A DNA stretch of 64,000 nt from a virus. Each line of letters starts with the position of its first letter. The stretch's first letter is position 1. The notes under the pieces were generated by a model. It did not search any database. It worked only from the letters and a program-made list of their open reading frames with translations, and was not told the origin of the DNA. A program made the position numbers and the translations under genes. The stretch is taken from positions 1 to 64,000 of IMG/VR virus record IMGVR_UViG_3300046007_004004; one strand, written 5' to 3'. Shown here piece after piece: positions 38,274 through 64,000 of the stretch.

Positions 38274-39434
38274 TTAGGTTTTTCGAAAAACGAATACGCC
38301 TTCGTGCTTAAATCCTTTTTGTTTTTTATTATTGCCTTTTCCGGGACGCACGTTCAACATCATCTTGATTGTTTCTACGTGCTTGAAATTTAACTTTTCT
38401 GAGATTTCTATCCAACGGTCTGTGATTGCAAACTGATCGTAATCGGCAATATTGACGGCATAGATACCGTCTTTTACTAGACCTCTATGCAGCATCTGAA
38501 TCGTAGGTTCGGCATAGTGATCGAACCATGCATCCAAATTAGTATACTTGTTCATACATTGGGTCGGTTCATCACAGTATATTTCTAAATTAAAATACGG
38601 TGGACTACTAAACGCGGCATCATACTTTCCTTCTTCCGGAACGAAATCCTCGCTACCACAATTATTCATTTGATAACCGCTGCCTAACCCAGCCTCATCC
38701 AACAAACTACCTAATGCATCAAGACCATTATAGGTTTTTGTATTAGGATCTATGCCTGTATAGTTAAATTTAAATACAGGACTCGTCATAGCACCCAGCA
38801 TTCTGCCACCATAACCTGAACTAAAGTCAAGAACGGAACCGAACATAGTAGGACAAATATATTCAAATATGGCCCTAGCATTCATAGGCTTGAAGTTTTG
38901 TATAGTGCCGCCCCCAGTCAAATCTAATGCCCTCAATATGCTTTTAGGCATGACGGCATTCTCTCCCTCATTTCTATATTGATAGCAAATTTTAATGGCG
39001 GCCTTCAGTTTTTTATCATTGTTGAATCTATGACGTAGACTGACTTCATCGTAGTTAAAAGTTTTAGCTTCCTGCATATTAGGAAACCAGAATCTACAAA
39101 ACTGCTGTCCTGCTGTTTTACCAGTAGATAAAGTTTTGTTTTGATCTATTTTTGATTCTTTTTTGTTAAGATTTAATAATTCTTTTACACAGCCATCTAG
39201 GGAAAAGTATGTGATAGGGAGTGTGCCTATGCTACGATAAATGTCAAATACATCTTGCTGTATTTTTTTCTTTCCTGCGTCATCAGCCTTGTTCCACTCT
39301 TCTTTGCTTAACTTTTTTAAGTCATTATAAACATGTTCATAGCCTGTAGACTTGTCAGTACTAGGTGTATAATTCCATTCTTTACAAATGTTATCATAGT
39401 AATTTAACACCTTTTTATTTGTAATGCTTGTCAT
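38274..39434 (-). CDS. DNA methyltransferase (SSPPYF type)
   Basis: 386 residues from the ATG at 39434. Class I SAM-dependent DNA MTase: VLDFSSGYGGRMLG (motif I, SAM site) and AFSSPPYFNLEIY (motif IV, S-P-P-Y as in N4-cytosine/N6-adenine enzymes of the beta group). YTGIDPNT follows motif I. Paralogue of the MTase at 47877. Overlaps the second MTase gene, so it is part of the three-gene cassette with the helicase. Target sequence unknown. Confidence 0.85.
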   Translation of the reverse strand: MTSITNKKVLNYYDNICKEWNYTPSTDKSTGYEHVYNDLKKLSKEEWNKADDAGKKKIQQDVFDIYRSIGTLPITYFSLDGCVKELLNLNKKESKIDQNKTLSTGKTAGQQFCRFWFPNMQEAKTFNYDEVSLRHRFNNDKKLKAAIKICYQYRNEGENAVMPKSILRALDLTGGGTIQNFKPMNARAIFEYICPTMFGSVLDFSSGYGGRMLGAMTSPVFKFNYTGIDPNTKTYNGLDALGSLLDEAGLGSGYQMNNCGSEDFVPEEGKYDAAFSSPPYFNLEIYCDEPTQCMNKYTNLDAWFDHYAEPTIQMLHRGLVKDGIYAVNIADYDQFAITDRWIEISEKLNFKHVETIKMMLNVRPGKGNNKKQKGFKHEGVFVFRKT

Positions 39435-40587
39435 AAATCTTTTTGATGATATCGTAATGCTCATATTTTGGAATGCGTTTCCAAAGAGTAGTACCATTTG
39501 AAGGTGTCGTTGCCTTTAATGCTTTCACCAACGCGGTGATTGCTTCACTGTTATAATACTTATAAAATTCATCGAATTCCTTTTTATTTTTGATTTTTAT
39601 CCAGATGGTATTATGACCAGTACCATACTCAGGACCTGCATATTTTACCGGGCTCTGGCCTTTATGAATTCCGTTCTTGCTGATCACCGCCTTATGCTTA
39701 CCAACGCCCTCATTTTCTGTTATTGTAGACTCGGCAACTTTAATAATATCTCCGAAACCTTCTTCATCCTTTTCCCCTACATTAAAGATCAAGGGGACGG
39801 TTCCTTCTTGTTCACTTAATTGAGTCCTATAATAACTACCATAATATGCTTGATAGCCCTCTAACTTTAATGATAATACTTCTAAAGCATAGCGATATGC
39901 TTTGATATCATGGTCTGGTAAAAACGGAGGATTATCAACTAAAAACGATCCTTCATCGCTCATGATTTTAACTTTTTTATGTGTCTTGGTAGGCTCAAAT
40001 ACCATGAGTGCTAAAAGAGTATGTGTTTTAGTTTTAGTCAAAGAACGATAAGCCGTCAATTGAAAAATGTTGGTACGTGTATAGGTGTTCTTATTAGCAC
40101 GACCAGTGATGATACAAAGTTTGCTTTGTCTCCTGAATTTAGGTACAAAGTGCGTCATAGTATCAAAATCAACATTACTTAATACATAGTCGAATGATTT
40201 ATGTAAAGTAAAACAATTTTTTTCTTCTATGTTTAGAAGAACATCTCTATTGCCTAAAGCTTTTTTAAGATTACTTTTGGCAAGGCTTATCTGAACTTTA
40301 TTGATATCATAACCAAAAAGTTGTTTGGTAAAAATATGATTTAGCCTGTCGGTTTCATCGGGTATGCAGTCAATAAGAGCATCCATTAAAATATCAGCGA
40401 GAACCAACAATATAGTACCAGTACCACATTGCGGATCGCAATATATCGTATTAGGATTAGATAGATCGGTTTTAGGTATTTGATCAACCATGATACGGAT
40501 GTATTCTTCATCCAGCATGGTTTGATTACCTAACGTATCATACAACTGAAGTTGCTTGATACGCTTTTTAATATTATTGGAAATCAT
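39415..40587 (-). CDS. Adenine-methyltransferase-like protein with specificity-like C-terminus
   Basis: 390 residues. Motif I DPQCGTGTIL (50-60) and GYDIN (93-97) define an SAM site of N6-adenine MTases. The catalytic block near 134-141 is DYVLSNVDF, where NPPF would be expected; an NPPF also occurs at 219-222 but in an unusual place. The C-terminal part (TIWIKIKNKKEFDEFYKYY, WKRIPK) resembles target-recognition domains of type II/Eco57I-like enzymes. Activity is uncertain. Overlaps both neighbours. Confidence 0.7.
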   Translation of the reverse strand: MISNNIKKRIKQLQLYDTLGNQTMLDEEYIRIMVDQIPKTDLSNPNTIYCDPQCGTGTILLVLADILMDALIDCIPDETDRLNHIFTKQLFGYDINKVQISLAKSNLKKALGNRDVLLNIEEKNCFTLHKSFDYVLSNVDFDTMTHFVPKFRRQSKLCIITGRANKNTYTRTNIFQLTAYRSLTKTKTHTLLALMVFEPTKTHKKVKIMSDEGSFLVDNPPFLPDHDIKAYRYALEVLSLKLEGYQAYYGSYYRTQLSEQEGTVPLIFNVGEKDEEGFGDIIKVAESTITENEGVGKHKAVISKNGIHKGQSPVKYAGPEYGTGHNTIWIKIKNKKEFDEFYKYYNSEAITALVKALKATTPSNGTTLWKRIPKYEHYDIIKKIYDKHYK

Positions 40588-42775
40588 TATATTGCTTGAT
40601 CGCTCTATTGACCGAAGTGATATTTAATGCAGGTTTTAGTTGTGCCCACTCGTTAGGCAACAATCCAGTAATTTGTTCCACAGTAGAAATATCTTTATAG
40701 TCAATTATATCGTCTATTGAAGTAATAGTCAAGTTTTCTGACCAGGCTAAATCTAACAATTTAAAAGTCTGTCGCAAAGCGTAACGTATGCGCAATACAG
40801 TTTGTTCTAAGACCTTTTCTTCGGATTTAGATAGATTCTTTTTCTGTCCTAGGCGTAATTTGTTTTTTCCTTCCAATATATTGTTAGAATTTAATTCGGT
40901 CTTAGCCGTAGTCTTCCCTTCTTTTTTCTTGTCTTGTAACATGTCTACGATATTGTCGTCAATGCCTGACTCATCAATAGCATTACCGATTCTATCCATG
41001 TGGTTAGCAATATTGCTTAAGAATCTAGTAGATACTTCTTCGCCGTCGATAATATTCCATTGATTACCTATGTAATCATAGACTTCACTTACCGCTAACC
41101 ATTGCGACAAAATAGTTTCTACAGGTTTGTTTTCAATTATGCTTACCTGCTCACAATATTGATAGACTACATTTATAAAACGCTCGGGTGCATAATCAAA
41201 CACCACTACGCTTTCTTTCTTATTCTTGCTATCAGGAGTCTTGCAACGGAAGCTGCCTTGGAAATAATCGGCGGCACTCTTATCGTTATTCATCTGATGA
41301 ACGCTACACCACTCAGGTACGCTAGTACCTTCAAGGAAACGCCCGCACGTTACAACGATGGTTCCTGAACCATCATTGGCATTATCATACTTGATGAGAT
41401 TTTTGACTTCTTGGATTTCAGTTACATGATTACCACTAGCATTGATGATCGTGCGCTTGCCAAAGAAAGGATGAGCCTTCAATAAAGCACATAGAGCATC
41501 GATAGCATCAACATCGTTTGGCAAGATCCAAAGCGTATGCCTTGATAACATTCCTGCATTCTTCAAAAACTTTTGCGGTGGATTTTTAAATGTAGATATC
41601 ACAAACTGTAAAAATTCATTTACAGCAACCTGATGCTTAAAGTTATTCTTTTCAGTAGCAAAAAGTTTAGGAAAAGTAAATCCATCTGTTCCTAAATATT
41701 GCTTGATGCTGTCAGGCACATTCACCATAGCATAACTAATATCAGCACGATATTTGAAATCTTCGGCTTGTGCTCCTGTGACAGTCTTGCGAATCAATTG
41801 TTCTTCAACATAATCAAAGTTATATATAGAATCTTTACTATAGCGGCCACTCAAAATAGTTTTATAGGGCGTACCACTCAATTCAAGTTTCTTTTTGAAG
41901 TTTAAAGACTTCCACAACCGTTCTGTATTATCAGTATCAGTTGCATAGTGCTGTTCGTCAAATATAATAATGTCCCATTCAACACCGAGTAAGACTTTTA
42001 ATAGTTCAGTTGGATTATCAAAATGCTTGTTGATATATTGTAAACTACAAAATACAACATTGGTCTTATTATTATCTAAACTTAGATTTTTCTTCTTATA
42101 TTGATTATAATCGTGATACACCCAGTTAGCGTAATTGACATGACTCTTTTCGCCGTTAGGCAAAAGTTCTGCCCAACTGTCGTTTACTTTAGTTTTGGCT
42201 GTTACTACAAGAATGTTTTTTGCTTTAAGTTTTCTTGAAATCTCATAAGAGATAAAACATTTACCAGAACGCATGATAGCATTAATCAAAATATCGTCTT
42301 TTATCTTAAATTGATCAAATGCCCAATTCACAATTTTATTTTGATATTCGTAGGCTGCAAAATCTGATATCGCATCAGAACCATATTTAAAAACATTAAG
42401 TGCGCGATGTGTCGCCTTTACGATATTATCTAAAGACTCTTTTTTAGGGTCAAAGAACCATTCGCTGCGATTTTTAGCAGGAACCCACATGCCCTCATTT
42501 TTTAGTCTCTTGTGTATGAAACTCTCAAGTTGACGTAGATTTTGAAGGCTAGTATTTAAGTCTCCAGTTTCACAAATGTCGCTGACATCGATAACGTCTA
42601 GGATAGTAGGAGAGTCAGCACTAACCGCCGCCGTCACCTGCTCACCTACGCGCATTTCAGCAGCTTCTTGGGCTGAGTTAGCCTCTCGCCTTACTGAACC
42701 TACCTTACCTTGGTAAATCTGTGCGTTCAGAGGAGTCGTATAAATGTAAATATCGCAATAATATTTCTTAGACAT
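40574..42775 (-). CDS. GIY-YIG/T5orf172-like nuclease fused to SF2 helicase
   Basis: 733 residues from the ATG at 42775. Residues ~5-125 look like a T5orf172-type GIY-YIG domain: CDIYIYTT, GKVGSVRRE (23-31), E84 in LESFIHKRL and SEWFF (104-108). Residues ~140-560 form an SF2 motor: INAIMRSGKC (motif I), FDEQH (272-276, motif II), LELSGTP (motif III-like) and YFQGSFRC (motif VI region). The C-terminus is helical. Fusion of nuclease and helicase beside two DNA MTases is a restriction-enzyme layout. Confidence 0.7.
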   Translation of the reverse strand: MSKKYYCDIYIYTTPLNAQIYQGKVGSVRREANSAQEAAEMRVGEQVTAAVSADSPTILDVIDVSDICETGDLNTSLQNLRQLESFIHKRLKNEGMWVPAKNRSEWFFDPKKESLDNIVKATHRALNVFKYGSDAISDFAAYEYQNKIVNWAFDQFKIKDDILINAIMRSGKCFISYEISRKLKAKNILVVTAKTKVNDSWAELLPNGEKSHVNYANWVYHDYNQYKKKNLSLDNNKTNVVFCSLQYINKHFDNPTELLKVLLGVEWDIIIFDEQHYATDTDNTERLWKSLNFKKKLELSGTPYKTILSGRYSKDSIYNFDYVEEQLIRKTVTGAQAEDFKYRADISYAMVNVPDSIKQYLGTDGFTFPKLFATEKNNFKHQVAVNEFLQFVISTFKNPPQKFLKNAGMLSRHTLWILPNDVDAIDALCALLKAHPFFGKRTIINASGNHVTEIQEVKNLIKYDNANDGSGTIVVTCGRFLEGTSVPEWCSVHQMNNDKSAADYFQGSFRCKTPDSKNKKESVVVFDYAPERFINVVYQYCEQVSIIENKPVETILSQWLAVSEVYDYIGNQWNIIDGEEVSTRFLSNIANHMDRIGNAIDESGIDDNIVDMLQDKKKEGKTTAKTELNSNNILEGKNKLRLGQKKNLSKSEEKVLEQTVLRIRYALRQTFKLLDLAWSENLTITSIDDIIDYKDISTVEQITGLLPNEWAQLKPALNITSVNRAIKQYNDFQ

Positions 42776-47229: not shown

Positions 47230-47823
47230 TCAACTAATTTGGAAACATTTTTGGAACGCATCCGGGGAAAGATAACCTTTATAAACCTTGTTATTTGCAG
47301 GATCAATGTCATTGAACGGAGGTCTCCATCCGTACTCTTTGGCATGCTGATTACTCAGCTCACCTTCAGCCCACTTAGTGGGTGCATCAGAGTCCCATTT
47401 ATTCAAAGATAAAATATCCTTGATCGCTTTATTACCCCATGTTCTTTTAGCAACGTCCCAAACTAAAACTGTAAGATCGTTTTTTGTAAGATTAGGTAGT
47501 AATCCATCATCTATAGATGGTTTCACTTTGAACCATAAATCGTTACCGTTGCTAGTACCAGGCTTTGTACTCCAACCAGGAAACCAAGCTAGTTGTCGAA
47601 CTAATCTTTCACCTACTGATCCCTTTCTTTTTTTACCTAGACATGGATAACTCATGCCTACCTTCAAAAAAAGATAATCAATGGCACTTGCCCTGTAGAC
47701 TATAGCATATACAAAGTTTTTCTTTATGCCATGCTTTCTACAAATTGCATATATTTGCCTATATGCTGTTAGGTCTTTACAATCAAAATAAAAGTCAGGC
47801 TTATGTAAGTCAATTTGTATCAT
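47230..47823 (-). CDS. GIY-YIG-like nuclease
   Basis: 197 residues. FVYAIVYRASAIDYLF (37-52), LKVGMS (53-58), GERLVRQLAWF (71-81) and E153/E155 near GELSNQH follow the GIY-YIG order (Y..Y, K-V-G, R, E). The first 30 residues are unclassified. It lies 53 bases from a DNA methyltransferase gene on the same strand, suggesting a restriction-modification pair. Catalytic assignment is tentative. Confidence 0.55.
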   Translation of the reverse strand: MIQIDLHKPDFYFDCKDLTAYRQIYAICRKHGIKKNFVYAIVYRASAIDYLFLKVGMSYPCLGKKRKGSVGERLVRQLAWFPGWSTKPGTSNGNDLWFKVKPSIDDGLLPNLTKNDLTVLVWDVAKRTWGNKAIKDILSLNKWDSDAPTKWAEGELSNQHAKEYGWRPPFNDIDPANNKVYKGYLSPDAFQKCFQIS

Positions 47824-47876: not shown

Positions 47877-48920
47877 TTACCCAAAATTAAACAACATGAT
47901 ACCGGCGGGTTCGACTTTGTTTTTGGACAGTACCATTATGCTTTCATCTGTATTCAGATTGGATTTGGCACTAGGTCGTACCCTATTCTTAAGGTCAGTG
48001 GTCTGTATATGATGATAGCCCAAACTTTTTGCCAACGTTAAAGTGTCCTCGTACAGTTTATAATTTGAAAAATTCTTTATGTTAACTAATAATTTACCTT
48101 CAGCAATTAGATATTTGTTGATGTTCACTAATGTGGGCTTAAGATAATTATCTAACCATTGCTGGTATGTAGTACCAGGTTTATATGATTGATTACCTAC
48201 CCTATAATCTTCAAGATTAAAATATGGAGGACTACTAAAAGCCAATCCAATCGTGTTCTCCCATTCAGGCACATACACCTCACTACCTTGGCATCGTATG
48301 TCGTATTTGCTATCTGTTAGGTTGACTGTATCATAATCCTTTGCCATTTCAAATAATCTGTCAACTAACAAGTTATTAGGGTCTGTCCCATAATATTCTA
48401 TTTTATTTTTCATTGCGCTTAGTAATCTAACACCCCAACCACAACTAAAATCATAATACTTGTTATTCATATTGTAATATTTCAATATGTGATCAGCAGT
48501 CTGCATTGGAAAGTTGCTAGGTTTCATAGCAACGCCCCCACCAGAAATTCTTAACGCCGTCTCTAAATTTTGTATATCAGTATTTGTTTTTGGATACACT
48601 TTTTCACTGGCTAATGTGCGGCTATAAAAATATCTTATTAGATCATTTGACTCAAATACCTCTTCTATGCTCCAGCGAGGGGTTTCAAGTTTTACTTTTG
48701 CCATCAAATCTTTATAGTAATAGTTGGCTATATCACCGATAGCAGTACCACCGCGCTTTACGCTTTTTAAGTTTTCTTTTACAAGGTTGTAGTCGGGTTT
48801 AGTATAATACTGTTGTTTTAGTTCAATACACTTTTCAACAGGCAGGTCATAATAATGGTCGGTGTGCAAAACCTTACCAAGATGTTCAATGGTATATTTT
48901 TTCTTAGTGGTTTTAGCCAC
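47877..48920 (-). CDS. DNA methyltransferase (SSPPYF type), paralogue
   Basis: 347 residues, GTG start. YDFSCGWGVRLLS (motif I), YYGTDPNN and LAFSSPPYFNLEDY (motif IV) match the MTase at 38274 block for block. Probably N4-cytosine or N6-adenine specific. Divergence outside the motifs suggests a different target. Next to a GIY-YIG-like gene. Confidence 0.85.
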   Translation of the reverse strand: MAKTTKKKYTIEHLGKVLHTDHYYDLPVEKCIELKQQYYTKPDYNLVKENLKSVKRGGTAIGDIANYYYKDLMAKVKLETPRWSIEEVFESNDLIRYFYSRTLASEKVYPKTNTDIQNLETALRISGGGVAMKPSNFPMQTADHILKYYNMNNKYYDFSCGWGVRLLSAMKNKIEYYGTDPNNLLVDRLFEMAKDYDTVNLTDSKYDIRCQGSEVYVPEWENTIGLAFSSPPYFNLEDYRVGNQSYKPGTTYQQWLDNYLKPTLVNINKYLIAEGKLLVNIKNFSNYKLYEDTLTLAKSLGYHHIQTTDLKNRVRPSAKSNLNTDESIMVLSKNKVEPAGIMLFNFG

Positions 48921-48935
48921 GATACTTTTATATGA

Positions 48936-49349
48936 TTAACTGACTTCGGTACGGCCGTTACCCAAGTCGCGCTGACGTACAATACGAATATCATCACGGC
49001 GTTTTTCTGGATCAGCCATTTCTTGCTCGTAAACTTCTAGTGCTACGTTACGGCACACAGTTTGGAACCAACGGTCAACTATCTCGTTGTCTGTGTCATC
49101 GGGTCTAATTTTATAACCTTGCTTGACAAGGTTTACAACAAACTTGTCGTTCCAATCTAATTCAAAACTACCATTGTTTATATTCGCAGGATCTAATTCA
49201 ACCTTGAGAATTGCAACATATGGTTCTCCATTTTGTGTAGCCAATTCTTTAGGAGTTAGTTCCTTTTCCTTCTTCTGAGCCTTTTTAGGTTTAGCTTCAG
49301 TTTTAGGAACTTCTGGCTTTTTGAAAAGACTTTTTAGTTTATCAAACAT
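48936..49349 (-). CDS. Conserved T4-like phage hypothetical protein
   Basis: 137 residues from the ATG at 49349. MFDKLKSLFKK, a basic linker, then PKELATQNGEPYVAIL and NNGSFELDWNDKFV, recurring in T4-like phages. Function unknown. Overlaps the UvdE gene by 8 bases. Confidence 0.7.
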   Translation of the reverse strand: MFDKLKSLFKKPEVPKTEAKPKKAQKKEKELTPKELATQNGEPYVAILKVELDPANINNGSFELDWNDKFVVNLVKQGYKIRPDDTDNEIVDRWFQTVCRNVALEVYEQEMADPEKRRDDIRIVRQRDLGNGRTEVS

Positions 49350-50370
49350 AGTTCTTGTATGTATCAAAAAGTCTCACGCTTGCGAGATTTTTTGCTTTGC
49401 TCTCGCACATGATATCAGCCCACTGCCAGTGTTCGTATGCCCAACGATTCATAGCATCATTGTAGAAATAGTCGCTATGGGCGCGTAGTTTCTGTTTATT
49501 GTACCCACTTTCCATCAATCGCTGTAGGTCATGTCGTTCTGATGTATTACGGTCAATGACACCATCTTCGCGTGATGTGCTAAAATGAATGACAGGGCGA
49601 ACACCACGCCAACTATCAATAAAATATTTGATACGATCATCGTCAGAATGGATATACTCACCTGTCTTTACCCAATGATGATGAATGTCTAGTACTAGAC
49701 CCAGATGTCCAGCCAGTTCGAGGCTGGATTCGATCCCCCAGCTGATTTCGTCGTTTTCGATGGTAATGGCATTTCTTGCTTCGGGCGAGAGCCTGCCGAG
49801 GGTGTCGATGATACCGGCTGGACCTTTGCGACCTGAGATATGTACATTGATCTTGAAGTCTTGGAATTTTCTACAAAACCCCATCCAACGGGCCATATCC
49901 ACATGGTACTCAAACTCCTCTATACTCTTATTTACTACCTCAGGTCTGTCGCTAGCAAGTACCACGAACTGATCTGGGTGGAATGAAAGACGAACATCGT
50001 TAGCACGGGCAGTCTCACCGATGGGTGCGAACCAACGCTCTAGGCTATCCTGCACATCCTGTCTACGCCAAAATGGCTTGTATTCGTCCATAGTATAGAA
50101 CGATAACATGTCGCTTGTGATACGCAACATACGCAACTGTGGGTCAAGTTTGCTTACATACTTGACTAGATTATGTGTATTAGTGATATTGCGTTTAGCG
50201 ACTTCAATCAGTTTGTCCTCAACAACTTGCTGTGACTTTTGACGCTTTGCCCATGCGTATGTAGTGCCACCTGTATTGTAGCCGTCTACGCTGGCTATCT
50301 CGCCCTTTTTATTGATTTCGGCTAGTTTACACGCGAAACCAATACGCTGAATGTTAGAGTTGAATGACAT
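49342..50370 (-). CDS. uvsE: UV damage endonuclease UvdE/UvsE
   Basis: 342 residues. IQRIGFACKL start, THNLVKYVSKLD, SFHPDQFVVL, INVHISGRKGPAG, ITIENDE and LDIHHHWVKTGEY are the TIM-barrel metal-ligand blocks of UvdE. It nicks 5' of UV photoproducts, starting excision repair. A sunlight-exposed phage would benefit. Normal length and complete. Confidence 0.94.
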   Translation of the reverse strand: MSFNSNIQRIGFACKLAEINKKGEIASVDGYNTGGTTYAWAKRQKSQQVVEDKLIEVAKRNITNTHNLVKYVSKLDPQLRMLRITSDMLSFYTMDEYKPFWRRQDVQDSLERWFAPIGETARANDVRLSFHPDQFVVLASDRPEVVNKSIEEFEYHVDMARWMGFCRKFQDFKINVHISGRKGPAGIIDTLGRLSPEARNAITIENDEISWGIESSLELAGHLGLVLDIHHHWVKTGEYIHSDDDRIKYFIDSWRGVRPVIHFSTSREDGVIDRNTSERHDLQRLMESGYNKQKLRAHSDYFYNDAMNRWAYEHWQWADIMCESKAKNLASVRLFDTYKNYV

Positions 50371-55126: not shown

Positions 55127-55990
55127 TCATGTACCCCAAGCATTCTTGAACAATGGCACTTGAATCCTATCGCTATATCGCAATCCATGCTTCATTGCTA
55201 GTTCGGCAACAGTACGATTGTTCAGACTATAAACACTTTCAACACCACCTACTGGCATTAGATAAACATTACCAGTAAAGCCCACGCTACGATATATTTT
55301 TATTACCTCTAGTGCCTCTGTACAATCTTCATGTGATGCAATCACAAACTTTAGATATGTATGGCCTATATCTTGATAACCACATACAACTTCGGGTCGT
55401 ATTGCTTCTTCTCTCTTCTCTCCGCTCACGCTTAGTTTTGCGCTTACACTGAATGTCACACTATCATATCCTCGTGTTAGATGCCAGTTCTTATCTTCCT
55501 GCCAACTTACAAGATATTCTGCTAGGTCTTTAGATAATTCTTGTGTACCATTCGTTTCAAAAGTAATCTCTTTGAGATTGTGCATCAATTCATGGTCAAG
55601 TAAATCCGGATAACTGCGCTGCCAACCTAGCAATGGCTCACCACCTGTGATGACCAGATGTTCATCATTCCATTCTTTATATGGCAATATGTCAACAATA
55701 TTTTCTGCTAGTTCATCTGTACTATATGTAGGGCTGAGTTTCTTGAAACGTACATCCCAACTTGCGTAACTATCACAACCAGTACTGACTAATGGCAATT
55801 CTTTATAGTCTTTATAATCTTTGGGGTTTACCTTGTGTCTCTCTTGCGACTTCTCGCCTCGTTTCATTCCAAAGCCATCGCAAGTGAAATTACAACCAAA
55901 CGTGCGTAAGAACACGCTAGGCACACCCATGTAACGTCCTTCACCTTGAATGCTATAGAATAGTTCGCTGACCTTGATTGACTTCTTCAT
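55127..55990 (-). CDS. queE: 7-carboxy-7-deazaguanine synthase QueE (radical SAM)
   Basis: 287 residues. FYSIQGEGRYMGVPSVFLRT, then C33 and C37 in CNFTCDGFG; the third cluster Cys appears to be C72 in STGCDSYASW, after a ~34-residue insertion. VITGGEPLL and ITFETNGTQ follow the radical SAM pattern. Makes CDG from CPH4 in the 7-deazaguanine route. The insertion and spacing differ from bacterial QueE but resemble some aquatic phage versions. Needs a [4Fe-4S] cluster. Confidence 0.92.
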   Translation of the reverse strand: MKKSIKVSELFYSIQGEGRYMGVPSVFLRTFGCNFTCDGFGMKRGEKSQERHKVNPKDYKDYKELPLVSTGCDSYASWDVRFKKLSPTYSTDELAENIVDILPYKEWNDEHLVITGGEPLLGWQRSYPDLLDHELMHNLKEITFETNGTQELSKDLAEYLVSWQEDKNWHLTRGYDSVTFSVSAKLSVSGEKREEAIRPEVVCGYQDIGHTYLKFVIASHEDCTEALEVIKIYRSVGFTGNVYLMPVGGVESVYSLNNRTVAELAMKHGLRYSDRIQVPLFKNAWGT

Positions 55991-58756: not shown

Positions 58757-59248
58757 TCATCCTTCGTATATGGCACTATTACTGTCATGCTCAAATACCT
58801 CTACACTTTTTACACGAACTTGTCCGTTCACAATGATGCCTGGGGTCGCTTTCATTTCTTCAATAATCTCGGCCATTTTTTTGTATGCCATCTCAGCGAA
58901 CTTCTCACAGCCTACTGCCGGGACGATGCGTAGATCAAGTATACCTAGATCCTTATAACCACCTTTGATCTCAGCAAGTCTCTTAAATGTTTCAAGTTCT
59001 GGATCATCTTCAGCGACAAGCGTAGTATGATCAAACATATATTCAGCCCATTGTTTGAACTTCTTTAGCCCGCCAAAGTCCATGACCCAGTTACGACAAT
59101 CAAGTGTTTCCGCCTCAAAGACTAAACGTATGCCAATGCTGTATCCATGTATGAGGCTACAGTGGCTATGTGTGCTGCGCCATTGACGGAACGCGCAACT
59201 CAAGCCACGATCATTGCCATATGTCTTTGTGCTGTAATACTTAGCCAT
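58757..59248 (-). CDS. queD: 6-carboxytetrahydropterin synthase (QueD/PTPS family)
   Basis: 163 residues from the ATG at 59248. SCAFRQWRSTHSHCSLIHGYS holds zinc His residues and catalytic C30; DFGGLK and FDHTTLV (58-62 and 72-78) give the other active-site residues and VFEHDSNSAIY the terminal Glu. The usual HGH is HGY here. Makes CPH4 from dihydroneopterin triphosphate. Supplies QueE. Confidence 0.9.
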   Translation of the reverse strand: MAKYYSTKTYGNDRGLSCAFRQWRSTHSHCSLIHGYSIGIRLVFEAETLDCRNWVMDFGGLKKFKQWAEYMFDHTTLVAEDDPELETFKRLAEIKGGYKDLGILDLRIVPAVGCEKFAEMAYKKMAEIIEEMKATPGIIVNGQVRVKSVEVFEHDSNSAIYEG

Positions 59249-59408
59249 TCTTGTTCTCGTATTCTTCAGCAATCTTGTTCTTTAATGTTTCAAATAACGG
59301 ATCCAATGCTATACTAGGATTTAATTCTAGTTCGGTATCAGTGATACAATTCTTGTCATAAATCACTACTACCTTATCACCCTTATTATTTTCAAATGTT
59401 AACTTCAT
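59241..59408 (-). CDS. Small hypothetical protein
   Basis: 55 residues, ATGA overlap with the SufE-like gene and 8-base overlap with queD. MKLTFENNKGDKVVVIYDKN, then an acidic helix. Not recognised. Confidence 0.55.
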   Translation of the reverse strand: MKLTFENNKGDKVVVIYDKNCITDTELELNPSIALDPLFETLKNKIAEEYENKNG

Positions 59409-59830
59409 GTTGGTTCCCCTACAAATATTTTTGCCTGCTCTTTTACCATATTGAGCATGTTATATGCACCATTACGGCGATTCATGCTTAGTATATTACC
59501 TAAATCAAGTTCTGTCATCAGATTACGGTCATTCTCAACGATATCTTTTGGACTGCTGCCACTATAGATATCGCTGACTAATGACACTGTGCCCTTCACG
59601 ATAGCTGCATCACTATCACATAGATACTGAATAGTGCCATTTTCATATTTAGGCACAAGCCATACTTGGCTCATGCACCCATGCACCTTGAAATTTTCTA
59701 ATCTAAACTCTTCTGGAAATGGCTTGGCTTTACGTCCTAAGTCGATAAGGAACTTATAACGTTCAGTATTATCAACAAACATTGATAATATTGTTTTATA
59801 CTGATCTATCTTTTGATTTATCAACGCCAT
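59405..59830 (-). CDS. SufE-like cysteine desulfurase sulfur acceptor
   Basis: 141 residues, normal SufE length. RYKFLIDLGRKAKPFP, then VHGCMSQVWLVP (the acceptor cysteine), KGTVSLVSDIYSG and LSMNRRNGAYNM all match SufE/CsdE. It carries persulfide from a desulfurase to the Fe-S scaffold. Works with the A-type carrier at 4.5 kb in principle; no desulfurase or scaffold is in the window, so host SufS/SufB may be used. Confidence 0.93.
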   Translation of the reverse strand: MALINQKIDQYKTILSMFVDNTERYKFLIDLGRKAKPFPEEFRLENFKVHGCMSQVWLVPKYENGTIQYLCDSDAAIVKGTVSLVSDIYSGSSPKDIVENDRNLMTELDLGNILSMNRRNGAYNMLNMVKEQAKIFVGEPT

Positions 59831-61464: not shown

Positions 61465-61615
61465 TTGCCACCTTGTTGGTATCAATAATAATTTCTAATG
61501 CCTGCTTAAGCAACTTCTCTAGTTCCCAAAGTTTCTTTTCGTTGAGTTCTAGTTTGGCTTCTAATGTACAGACCTTAGTGAATAACTCTGTGTCGAAATC
61601 ACTTCCTTCTTTCAT
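61433..61615 (-). CDS. Small coiled-coil protein
   Basis: 60 residues, heptad-like LEAKLELNEKKLWELEKLLKQAL. Coupled to folE by ATGA. Function unknown. Confidence 0.6.
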   Translation of the reverse strand: MKEGSDFDTELFTKVCTLEAKLELNEKKLWELEKLLKQALEIIIDTNKVANGIQETARSK

Positions 61616-62292
61616 TTGCAGCCTGCTCTTGCGATATTGTAAAACTCTTGTCTAGCAGCAGGATCAGTCTTGAATCCTCCACCTAAACGACTAGTGACAG
61701 TTGAACTACCAGTATCCTCGACACCGCGACTCTTGACACAATAATGCTGCGCGTCAATCATGACGGCAACATCTTCTGTCTCAAGGATAAAGCAAAGTGT
61801 GTGGAAAATCTGTTCAGTCAGTCGCTCTTGAATCTGTGGACGCTTACTGAAGTATTCAACAATACGATTGATCTTACTAAGACCAAGCACTTTCTTTTTA
61901 GGGACATATGCTACCGTTGCAAGACCATCGATGACAACAAAGTGATGTTCGCAATTGCTTTGTACATTGACATTGCGCTCTACGACCATCTCGTTATAGT
62001 GCATCTTGTTATCTACAGTTGTACATTTTGGAAATGCTTCATAATCTAGACCCCAAAAAATTTCATTTGTATACATTTTGGCAACACGCTTGGGTGTTTC
62101 TGCTAGACTATCATCACTTAGATCAAGACCTAATGTTCGCATGATTGCTGCGAAATGGCCTTCAATGATGTCAATCTTTTCTTTACGGTCTAGTGTATTT
62201 TCTTTTGTAGGCGTTTCTACGCCGACACTAACTAGATATTCGTGAACACGGTTGCCCAACTCGGGATCGGTCTTTGTCTTATTATAACTCAT
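61612..62292 (-). CDS. folE: GTP cyclohydrolase I
   Basis: 226 residues. NCEHHFVVIDGLATVAYVPK (zinc Cys and His), LSKINRIVEYFSKRPQIQERLTEQI and MIDAQHYCVKSRGVEDTGSST are complete family blocks. Makes dihydroneopterin triphosphate, the QueD substrate. Good AAGGAG site. Distal gene of the 7-deazaguanine set. Confidence 0.95.
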   Translation of the reverse strand: MSYNKTKTDPELGNRVHEYLVSVGVETPTKENTLDRKEKIDIIEGHFAAIMRTLGLDLSDDSLAETPKRVAKMYTNEIFWGLDYEAFPKCTTVDNKMHYNEMVVERNVNVQSNCEHHFVVIDGLATVAYVPKKKVLGLSKINRIVEYFSKRPQIQERLTEQIFHTLCFILETEDVAVMIDAQHYCVKSRGVEDTGSSTVTSRLGGGFKTDPAARQEFYNIARAGCK

Positions 62293-62364: not shown

Positions 62365-63126
62365 TCAATCAATATAACCCTTATTTTTAAGATAAGGAAT
62401 CATGATTTTGTCAACTAAAGCTTTATTTTGTTCTGTAGATGGATGCGTTCCTAATTCTTTTATTTCAGGGTACCCGGATTCATTTATAAACCAGTCCCAT
62501 GCATTGTCAATAGGTAACCATTGGTTCCAGTCTATCATATCATGTAAATTTTGTATATCTGGGTGCAATGGTAATTTAAGATCATTATCATTAAAACTTG
62601 TTCTAAAAGTCCATTGGTTAATATTAGTGAAAAAATACTTAATCTTCAATTTTTCACATAGCCACTGTACCCTTAATATATTTTCTAAAGTTTGGATCGC
62701 GCTACCCTTATAGTCATAAAAATTTTTATAATAATTTTTACTTAATTCATCGTCCCATAATGGCTGTATTAGGTAATAATTTTTATTTGGATCTTCCATA
62801 TCTATGCTACAAGGATTACTATAATTATAAATTCCCCAATCTATTTTACAATAGTCGTATGGTTTAGTTTCTGAGAAAAATTCTTGTCTCGTATGACTAC
62901 TCCACATGATGCCAACCAAAATTTCTTCTGGTTTATATGATTTTAAAACTTTATTAATGTAGTAAATAGCTCTTTTACTAATAATACCATTACTACCTGC
63001 ACCCTGACCAAGATATAAGACTTCACAACCTAAAAATTCTGCTAAAGGTTTTGGCCAGTTTGTTGCTGTGTTCGGTACTTGTGTATAACTACAGCCTAAA
63101 GTTATTAGTAATTTAGGATTTGCCAT
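62365..63126 (-). CDS. SGNH/GDSL hydrolase-like protein
   Basis: 253 residues from the ATG at 63126. [13 protein letters not shown] (GCSYT), [19 protein letters not shown] (Gly/Asn block) and [16 protein letters not shown] (HP as in DxxH). Resembles the 57054 protein. Likely an esterase; substrate unknown. Confidence 0.8.
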
Positions 63127-64000
63127 TTGCGAATACACCGTTGTATTGCTGCGTCACTCTTACAAAAGTCGTACACTTGCTTAGATTTTTTAAACTATCG
63201 GCGCCTACGTATGTGCATGTACTGCGTATACCACCTAGTATATCAAGGACAGTACTACTTACTGGGCCGCGATATGGAACACGTACTGTACGACCTTCGC
63301 TACTACGATACTCAGCAACACCACCATTATGTTTATTCATGGCAGTATCGCTGCTCATACCATAAAACATACGATATTGCTTATCCCCTTCTAGGATGAT
63401 TTCTCCACCGCCCTCATCATGTCCAGCAAACATGCCGCCTAGCATCACAAAATCAGCCCCGGCGCCAAAGGCTTTAGCGACATCACCAGGGCAAGTGCAG
63501 CCACCATCAGCAATAATATGACCACCAAGACCATGAGCCGCATCGGCGCACTCAATGATTGCTGAGAGTTGAGGATATCCCACACCAGTTTGTATGCGAG
63601 TAGTACACACACTGCCAGGACCAATGCCAACTTTAATGATATCTGCTCCACGTAATATCAACTCCTGCGTCATATCTGCTGTAACAACATTACCAGCAAT
63701 AATAGTTTTCTTTGGATACTTTTCACGAATCTTACTAACGAATATACCAAAATGTTCGCTATAACCATTTGCCACGTCAATACAGATATATTGAATTTCT
63801 GGATATACATTAAAAATCTGTTGTAATCTTTCTAAATCTTTATCACTGGTACCAGTACTGACAGCAAAATAGTCAGTACCAATCTTAAAAATACTATCAG
63901 CAATCATATCAAATGTATGACTCTTAGTCAAACAAGTGAATAGTTTGTGACGGCTGATTTCTTCAGCCATAGTAAGTGTGCCAACACCGTCCATGTTAGC
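63113..64000 (-). CDS. guaC: GMP reductase (GuaC), partial at its 5' end
   Basis: About 296 residues visible; the frame continues past the right edge, where ANMDGVGT matches the inner ANMDTVGT of GuaC rather than a start. [36 protein letters not shown] (catalytic Cys loop), [26 protein letters not shown] and RGPVSSTV follow the enzyme through. Converts GMP to IMP. About 60 N-terminal residues are missing from the window. Confidence 0.94.

What the first reader, a model, noticed from the sequence alone, without database searches (positions are those of the whole stretch)
38274..42775. Three-gene restriction-like cassette: GIY-YIG/helicase fusion plus two DNA methyltransferases
Seen: a 733-residue protein with a T5orf172-like nuclease N-terminus (GKVGSVRR, E84, EWF) joined to an SF2 helicase, overlapping a second gene with MTase motif I (DPQCGTG) and specificity-like C-terminus, overlapping a third gene with SSPPYF. 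Known: type I/III/ISP systems pair helicases and MTases, but a GIY-YIG nuclease fused to the helicase with two separate MTases is not a layout I recognise. Inference: a phage-borne restriction or competitor-exclusion system, or an anti-restriction self-modification set.
Basis: partly seen in the sequence, partly recalled or inferred. Interest (0 to 1): 0.85.

Follow-up and report, generated by a model that had tools for sequence, protein, structure and literature searches.

The report
Phage nuclease-helicase with two methyltransferase-like genes
A freshwater phage carries a three-gene set that looks like a restriction (DNA-cutting) system: a DNA-cutting motor, a probably dead methyltransferase that likely recognises DNA, and an active methyltransferase; the motor and its partner belong to a family common in gut bacteria, while the active methyltransferase is a phage gene beside which the nuclease keeps being swapped.

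Summary
The three genes are real, intact, overlapping and under purifying selection. The first gene (40574-42775) is a GIY-YIG (T5orf172) nuclease fused to an SF2 helicase: Pfam above threshold, confident model with the right topology, catalytic residues conserved. The 'two methyltransferases' reading needs correcting. MT2 (39415-40587) has a complete gamma-class MTase fold with a recognition-domain-like C-terminus and an intact SAM motif, but motif IV (NPPY) is degenerate in all ten relatives, so it is probably a recognition subunit. MT3 (38274-39434) is the likely active enzyme (invariant SSPPYFNLE). All phage relatives of the helicase found keep the order HEL-MT2-MT3. Outside phages the layout is not strange: HEL and MT2 are distant relatives of a widespread, seemingly uncharacterised gut-bacterial operon (MTase half, NPPY MTase, GIY-YIG-helicase). 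What is new is the phage variant: MT2 lost its catalytic motif and a phage-specific MTase, MT3, is the partner. MT3 occurs in hundreds of phage contigs next to changing nucleases (HEL, T5orf172, several HNH types); on its tree HEL changes at least five times. Most likely a phage-borne ATP-dependent restriction module against competing or host DNA, with MT3 as self-protection. Activity and specificity are not shown.

The parts
40574..42775 (-). HEL: 733-aa protein, N-terminal GIY-YIG (T5orf172) nuclease fused to SF2 (ResIII-type) helicase
   Evidence: Pfam ResIII 50.5 bits, T5orf172 20.6 bits; conserved in 14 phage loci
42419..42775 (-). GIY-YIG/T5orf172 nuclease domain, residues 1-119; Y10, Y12, K24, G26, R42, E84, H88, E105-W106-F107
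   Evidence: T5orf172 24.9 bits; invariant columns; model pLDDT 89; T5orf172/GIY-YIG/Bro viral models are the best fold matches
41864..42355 (-). Helicase N-terminal motor region (GKC Walker A, DEQH, SGTP follows) of HEL
   Evidence: ResIII hit; invariant G182 K183 C184, D284-E285-Q286-H287, S311-G312-T313-P314 in 744-aa numbering
39415..40587 (-). MT2: 390-aa gamma-class MTase fold plus recognition-domain-like C-terminus, catalytic motif IV degenerate
40417..40437 (-). MT2 motif I (SAM binding) DPQCGTG, residues 51-57
   Evidence: D51 P52 Q53 C54 G55 G57 invariant in 10 relatives
40165..40176 (-). MT2 motif IV position, residues 138-141, NVDF in place of NPPY
   Evidence: alignment; the alignment to 3ldu ends right at this position
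38274..39434 (-). MT3: SPPYF-type amino-methyltransferase, 386 aa from the likely start (ORF-list start 39497)
   Evidence: phrog_12517 1.1e-10
38592..38606 (-). MT3 motif IV SPPYF
   Evidence: F296-S297-S298-P299-P300-Y301-F302-N303-L304-E305 invariant in 18 aligned proteins

Best explanation
A phage-borne, ATP-dependent restriction-modification-like module. MT2, with a MTase fold, recognition domain and probable SAM site but no catalytic motif IV, recognises a DNA site and its methylation state and recruits HEL. HEL translocates on or remodels DNA with its SF2 motor and cuts with its GIY-YIG domain. MT3 methylates an exocyclic amino group (N4-cytosine or N6-adenine, undetermined) on phage DNA and so spares it. 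The target would be unmodified DNA in the infected cell: competing phages, satellites, plasmids or the host chromosome. Shown: gene content, order, conservation, domain identity, motif state, relationship of HEL and MT2 to the bacterial operon, repeated partner exchange beside MT3. Inferred: complex formation, cleavage, methylation, that MT3 protects against HEL, and the target.
For: T5orf172 and ResIII matches and GIY-YIG topology with catalytic residues kept. HEL-MT2-MT3 in this order in every phage HEL locus, with overlapping genes. MT2 occurs if and only if HEL does (12 of 12), while MT3 also occurs without them, so MT2 goes with HEL as a recognition subunit would. MT2 is a full-length homologue of the bacterial MTase next to the bacterial HEL (hhalign 98.6%, E 8e-16) and folds like CamA, M.TaqI and BrxX including the recognition domain. 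In other phages MT3 sits directly beside other nucleases: HNH, T5orf172, a helicase-NPPY-MTase. Purifying selection on all three genes. A phage T5orf172 nuclease that attacks a satellite is known (ICP1 Odn, PMC8263062).
Against: No activity, methylome or specificity data. The Walker A of all phage HELs reads GKC rather than GKT/S, so ATPase activity is not assured. MT3 with nucleases of many kinds could mean that it is merely a landing site for mobile nucleases. MT3 also occurs with no recognised nuclease nearby in about 15 of 59 loci. No PDB sequence relative of HEL or MT3.
Confidence: 0.6

Rival explanations
1. Mobile nuclease hotspot. MT3 is a conserved phage MTase used for anti-restriction, packaging or epigenetic timing, and the locus beside it is simply a preferred landing site for homing-type or other selfish nucleases, of which HEL-MT2 is one. 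No R-M pairing exists.
For: HNH and GIY-YIG genes beside MT3 change many times (26 changes on the tree for 12 labels), as free-standing homing endonucleases do. MT3 stands alone in some phages. Distant MT3 relatives in Staphylococcus and Vibrio phages sit among replication genes.
Against: Some partners are not homing-like: HEL+MT2, a 1155-aa helicase-MTase plus an MTase half (L098), and a D12 MTase with an unidentified, REase-like gene (L101). MT2-MT3 overlaps of 20-23 nt recur.
Confidence: 0.2
2. Host-DNA degradation or takeover system: the nuclease-helicase destroys the unmethylated host chromosome for nucleotides and shutdown, and MT3 marks phage DNA as self.
For: Same gene logic; phages with modified DNA attack host DNA (general knowledge, also stated in PMC7824862). 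The window also carries an ATP-dependent ligase, a 5'-3' exonuclease and UvdE.
Against: Nothing separates it from competitor exclusion by sequence; host breakdown usually uses less specific nucleases.
Confidence: 0.12
3. Self-modification or repair/recombination set, with HEL acting as structure-specific nuclease-helicase on replication intermediates and MT3 protecting phage DNA from host restriction.
For: T5orf172 proteins in jumbo phages were proposed to act in recombination (PMC7824862); the best PDB fold match, weak (E 0.44), is the Slx1 branched-DNA nuclease.
Against: HEL's bacterial relatives sit in MTase operons, in four of the compared loci with McrBC alongside, and HEL was never found without the MTase-fold MT2 in phages.
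Confidence: 0.08

Closest known systems
Uncharacterised gut-bacterial operon: MTase half (motif I only) - Eco57I-like MTase (NPPY) - T5orf172/GIY-YIG SF2 helicase (L139 phage NatCom_35866, L140, and most of 80 loci in Bacteroidota, Clostridia, Treponema)
   Same: GIY-YIG-helicase protein; adjacent MTase homologous to MT2 over its length; two MTase-like genes plus one nuclease-helicase gene
   Different: Bacterial MTase keeps NPPY (63 of 65) but has a degenerate motif I (DPACKTG); phage MT2 is the reverse. Bacterial partner is an MTase half, phage partner is MT3. Order MT-MT-HEL versus HEL-MT2-MT3. HEL about 25% identical and some 240 residues shorter.
PADLOC PDLC03626 REase_MTase_IIG (helicase plus MTase in one 1359-position profile; resembles a Type ISP layout)
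   Same: HEL (1e-11) and the bacterial HEL (3e-32) match its helicase half, the bacterial MTase (4e-35) its MTase half
   Different: Split genes; GIY-YIG N-terminus; MT2 does not match it; extra MT3
Type I/III/ISP restriction-modification
   Same: SF2 motor plus MTase-fold recognition component, ATP dependence expected
   Different: No HsdS-like gene seen; separate MT3; GIY-YIG nuclease; not one polypeptide
ICP1 Odn (phage T5orf172 nuclease against PLE satellites)
   Same: Phage-encoded T5orf172 nuclease used in conflict with another mobile element (PMC8263062)
   Different: No helicase, no MTase; RepA-like DNA-binding domain sets specificity
phrog_12517 (unknown function) and 'N-4 cytosine-specific DNA methylase' / 'DNA methyltransferase' of Vibrio and Staphylococcus phages
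   Same: MT3 homologues
   Different: 25-35% identity; not next to HEL/MT2

Membership tests
GIY-YIG / T5orf172 nuclease | Curated profile match | tested here: met
   24.9 bits vs cut-off 20 for the isolated domain; 24 of 30 family members match T5orf172
GIY-YIG / T5orf172 nuclease | Fold and catalytic residues (two Tyr, Arg, Glu) | tested here: met
   Y10, Y12, R42 invariant, E84 (D in other branches), EWF; model with strand-strand-helix-strand-helix order, pLDDT 89; viral fold hits T5orf172/Bro, prob 1.0. PDB search alone is weak: Slx1 E 0.44
GIY-YIG / T5orf172 nuclease | DNA cleavage | not testable with these tools
   needs protein
Bacterial MTase/MTase/GIY-YIG-helicase operon | HEL homologue with T5orf172 N-terminus | tested here: met
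   tblastn 25.6% identity, 2e-36 to the HEL of MT835565 = L140; shared T5orf172
Bacterial MTase/MTase/GIY-YIG-helicase operon | Adjacent Eco57I-like MTase with recognition domain | tested here: met
   MT2 hhalign prob 98.6, E 8e-16, 346 columns
Bacterial MTase/MTase/GIY-YIG-helicase operon | NPPY motif in that MTase | tested here: not met
   NPPY in 63 of 65 bacterial, 0 of 10 phage MT2 at that position
Bacterial MTase/MTase/GIY-YIG-helicase operon | MTase-half partner, order MT-MT-HEL | tested here: not met
   Phage order HEL-MT2-MT3; no bacterial-type MTase half present and MT3 not found in the bacterial loci
DNA amino-methyltransferase (MT3) | Motif I and motif IV (D/N/S)PPY | tested here: met
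   DFSxGYGxR and SSPPYFNLE; N6_N4_Mtase sub-threshold hit for the paralogue only
DNA amino-methyltransferase (MT2) | Motif IV (D/N/S)PP(Y/F) | tested here: not met
   SNVDF and equivalents
Type I R-M | HsdS with two recognition domains, HsdM with NPPY/F | tested here: not met
   No such gene found next to HEL; MT2 lacks motif IV
Type ISP R-M | Nuclease, helicase, MTase and recognition domain in one polypeptide | tested here: not met
   Split into separate genes in all phage loci
MADS | MAD2 plus the other mad genes | tested here: not met
   mad2 hits 2e-7 and 5e-8 look like generic MTase similarity; no other mad gene hit among the three proteins; flanking genes not scanned with PADLOC
Free-standing homing endonuclease | Homing into an empty allele | not tested
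   would need mixed infection; only the repeated gain and loss beside MT3 was seen

The most novel reading that the evidence does not exclude
MT3 is a common self-mark enzyme for a large clade of aquatic phages. Its locus works as an exchangeable weapon rack: one conserved methyltransferase confers immunity, and different nucleases (GIY-YIG-helicase with a pseudo-methyltransferase recognition subunit, stand-alone T5orf172 or HNH enzymes with a ParB-like partner, others) are swapped in to attack unmarked DNA in the same cell.
Probability: 0.35. Interest if true: 0.75.

Novelty: new variant of a known kind. Interest (0 to 1): 0.55.

Why it matters
If right, many environmental phages carry restriction-type weapons of their own, built from one fixed methyltransferase and swappable nucleases, with a pseudo-methyltransferase reused as recognition subunit. 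That would make a concrete test of phage-phage exclusion by restriction possible, give a function to a PHROG of unknown function (phrog_12517), and draw attention to a widespread bacterial GIY-YIG-helicase/MTase operon that no NCBIfam model covers.

Tried and rejected
Reading MT2 as a second working MTase: rejected on motif IV. Reading VDNPPFLP in MT2 as motif IV: rejected, wrong place and not conserved. A genome-contig scan with the phage HEL alignment: no confirmed relative, so the exact phage form was not seen in cellular genomes; a second scan with the gut form found 80 loci. PDB sequence searches with the MT3 and HEL profiles: nothing meaningful. EcoRI-likeness of the gene beside MT3 in L101: noticed by eye, not supported by phmmer against PDB or by Pfam, so not used as evidence. 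The 214-aa gene beside MT3 (L108 and others): looked REase-like by eye, no Pfam hit. The 185-200-aa gene beside MT3 in 14 loci: only a sub-threshold HNH_4 hit. Relatives of the window's second MT3 were all near-identical, so they gave no independent test. Paper searches found no description of the GIY-YIG-helicase/two-MTase operon; the library lacks most subscription papers.

Full report
WHAT THE SEQUENCE SHOWS. The window is part of a 64.8-kb virus record. The relevant stretch of the minus strand has three overlapping intact ORFs: HEL 40574-42775 (733 aa from the ATG; 744 aa if an upstream TTG is used), MT2 39415-40587 (390 aa) and MT3 38274-39497. The MT3 start is more likely at 39434 (M22), which aligns with starts in relatives and gives the 20-nt MT2-MT3 overlap seen in other loci. 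A 75-aa ORF ends one base before HEL starts. A tail fibre gene, ligase, 5'-3' exonuclease and UvdE in the window fit a tailed phage.

THE NUCLEASE-HELICASE. HEL matches Pfam ResIII (50.5 bits) and T5orf172 (20.6 bits; 24.9 for the domain alone; cut-off 20). Across 27 aligned N-termini from phages and bacteria Y10, Y12, K24, G26, R42, H88 and E105 are invariant and W106-F107 nearly so; E84 stands four residues before H88, where other branches have D. The AlphaFold2 model of the domain (pLDDT 89, pTM 0.82) has the GIY-YIG order of strands and helices. Its best viral structural matches are T5orf172, Bro and GIY-YIG proteins with probability 1.0; in PDB the top hit is the GIY-YIG nuclease Slx1, but weakly (E 0.44). 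The motor has DEQH, SGTP and the QxxxR region, and an unusual but invariant GKC Walker A.

THE TWO METHYLTRANSFERASE-LIKE GENES. MT2 keeps motif I (D51-P52-Q53-C54-G55-x-G57) and the motif II acid D94 in all ten relatives. Motif IV is lost in all ten: SNVDF, SNLDY, SSIDF, SAIDF, SGVQF and the like. A profile alignment to the solved methylase 3ldu ends right at this point. Its predicted structure (pLDDT 88) matches CamA, M.TaqI, MmeI and BrxX over MTase domain plus recognition domain (E down to 1.6e-14). The simplest reading is a catalytically dead MTase kept as a DNA-recognition subunit; SAM binding may remain. MT3 has the motifs D-[FY]-S-x-G-[YW]-G-x-R and SSPPYFNLE in all 18 aligned proteins, down to 26% identity, the mark of an amino-MTase; N4C versus N6A cannot be told.

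CONSERVATION. Every viral contig found with HEL carries HEL-MT2-MT3 in that order, over a range down to 49% HEL identity, on contigs up to 345 kb. Overlaps recur: often 14 nt for HEL-MT2 and 20-23 nt for MT2-MT3. dN/dS is about 0.06-0.16 for pairs in which dS is not saturated.

THE WIDER FAMILY. HEL has distant relatives in gut phages and Lak phages. Phage NatCom_35866 and gut contig MT835565 carry an MTase half, an NPPY MTase and a GIY-YIG-helicase; MT835780 carries a differently divided form. A scan of bacterial genomes from these returned the capped 80 of 135 loci, mainly Bacteroidota and Clostridia; of the 87 loci compared (bacterial plus phage) 64 have the MTase half and 76 a match to the full MTase, upstream of HEL in the main form. 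Four of the compared loci also carry McrBC. So 'nuclease-helicase plus two MTase genes' is a widespread layout. MT2 is homologous to the full bacterial MTase along its length (hhalign 98.6%, E 8e-16). The states are opposite: the bacterial protein keeps NPPY (63 of 65) with a degenerate SAM motif (DPACKTG, no motif II acid in those read), and its MTase half keeps a good SAM motif with no NPPY (0 of 63). PADLOC holds a fused version as 'Type IIG'. NCBIfam has no covering model, and the papers searched did not describe the operon. The phage form itself was not seen in cellular genomes at the sensitivity used.

MT3 AS A HUB. MT3 is far commoner than HEL: 425 viral stretches encode relatives, 80 kept. 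Among 59 loci after removing near-copies, 12 have HEL and MT2. Eighteen more have another nuclease within three genes with at least some Pfam support: HNH and T5orf172, two of the clusters being below the curated cut-off. Nine more have candidates with weak or no Pfam support. A ParB-like (DGQH) protein, identified mostly by eye with a weak phrog_723 hit, is in 25 loci and never with HEL. L098 has a 1155-aa helicase-NPPY protein and an N6_Mtase half directly before MT3. On the MT3 tree (58 rows, 33 of 55 inner branches starred) HEL needs 7 changes, at least 5 forced by starred branches, and all labels together 26. So nuclease partners have been exchanged repeatedly beside a conserved MTase. 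The labels rest partly on clusters with weak functional support, and the 'none' class includes contig ends.

MECHANISM. Best supported: MT2 finds the site and senses its modification, HEL moves and cuts, MT3 marks phage DNA. MT2 tracks HEL (12 of 12), not MT3, which fits a restriction complex HEL-MT2 with MT3 as separate protector. Cleavage, methylation, complex formation and target are inferred. The main rival is that MT3 is a landing site for selfish nucleases; HEL+MT2 and the L098 module fit that less well. Precedent for a phage T5orf172 nuclease used in conflict is ICP1 Odn (PMC8263062); jumbo-phage T5orf172 proteins have also been proposed to act in recombination (PMC7824862).

VERDICT. 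Real, conserved and under selection. It is a new variant of a known kind; the exchange of nucleases beside MT3 is the more interesting part.

Noticed in passing
window 47877-48920 (-) with 47230-47823 (-): Second MT3-family MTase (28% identical to MT3, SSPPYFNLE kept), followed by a 197-aa ORF that by eye has GIY-YIG-like motifs (LKVGMS...ERLVRQ...E); no Pfam hit. Possibly a second nuclease/MTase pair in the same phage.
   Followed up: partly
window 55127-55990, 58757-59272, 61612-62292, 63113-63994 (-): By sequence these look like QueE, QueD, GTP cyclohydrolase (FolE, phrog_2197 4e-75) and GMP reductase: possible 7-deazaguanine (preQ0) synthesis, which could mean a modified phage genome. QueC and DpdA were not sought.
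   Followed up: no
window 49342-50370 (-): UvdE-type UV endonuclease (Pfam 128 bits), two genes upstream of the second MT3-family gene.
   Followed up: no
L139, L140, L141 and bacterial loci L146-L225: Gut-bacterial operon in which one MTase half carries an intact SAM motif without NPPY and the neighbouring MTase carries NPPY with a degenerate SAM motif; in L141 the pieces are divided differently, with one downstream of HEL. Suggests a split active site across two subunits.
   Followed up: partly
L101:1716-3484: Beside MT3: a 275-aa gene with EcoRI-like wording by eye (PDGG...EAKHQ...GNAIER) and a D12 class MTase (Pfam 103 bits). EcoRI similarity not confirmed by phmmer or Pfam.
   Followed up: partly
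MT3 loci, e.g. L102:7190-8326, L110:4766-5986: A ~380-aa protein with a W-D-[GA]-Q-H-T motif (ParB/DndB-like by eye) sits beside MT3 in 25 of 59 loci and never together with HEL; function unknown.
   Followed up: partly
window 40574-42775, Walker A: All phage HELs examined have GKC instead of GKT/GKS in the Walker A motif, while the gut-bacterial relatives have GKT.
   Followed up: no
window 59405-59830 (-): Looks like a SufE-type protein by eye, unusual in a phage.
   Followed up: no
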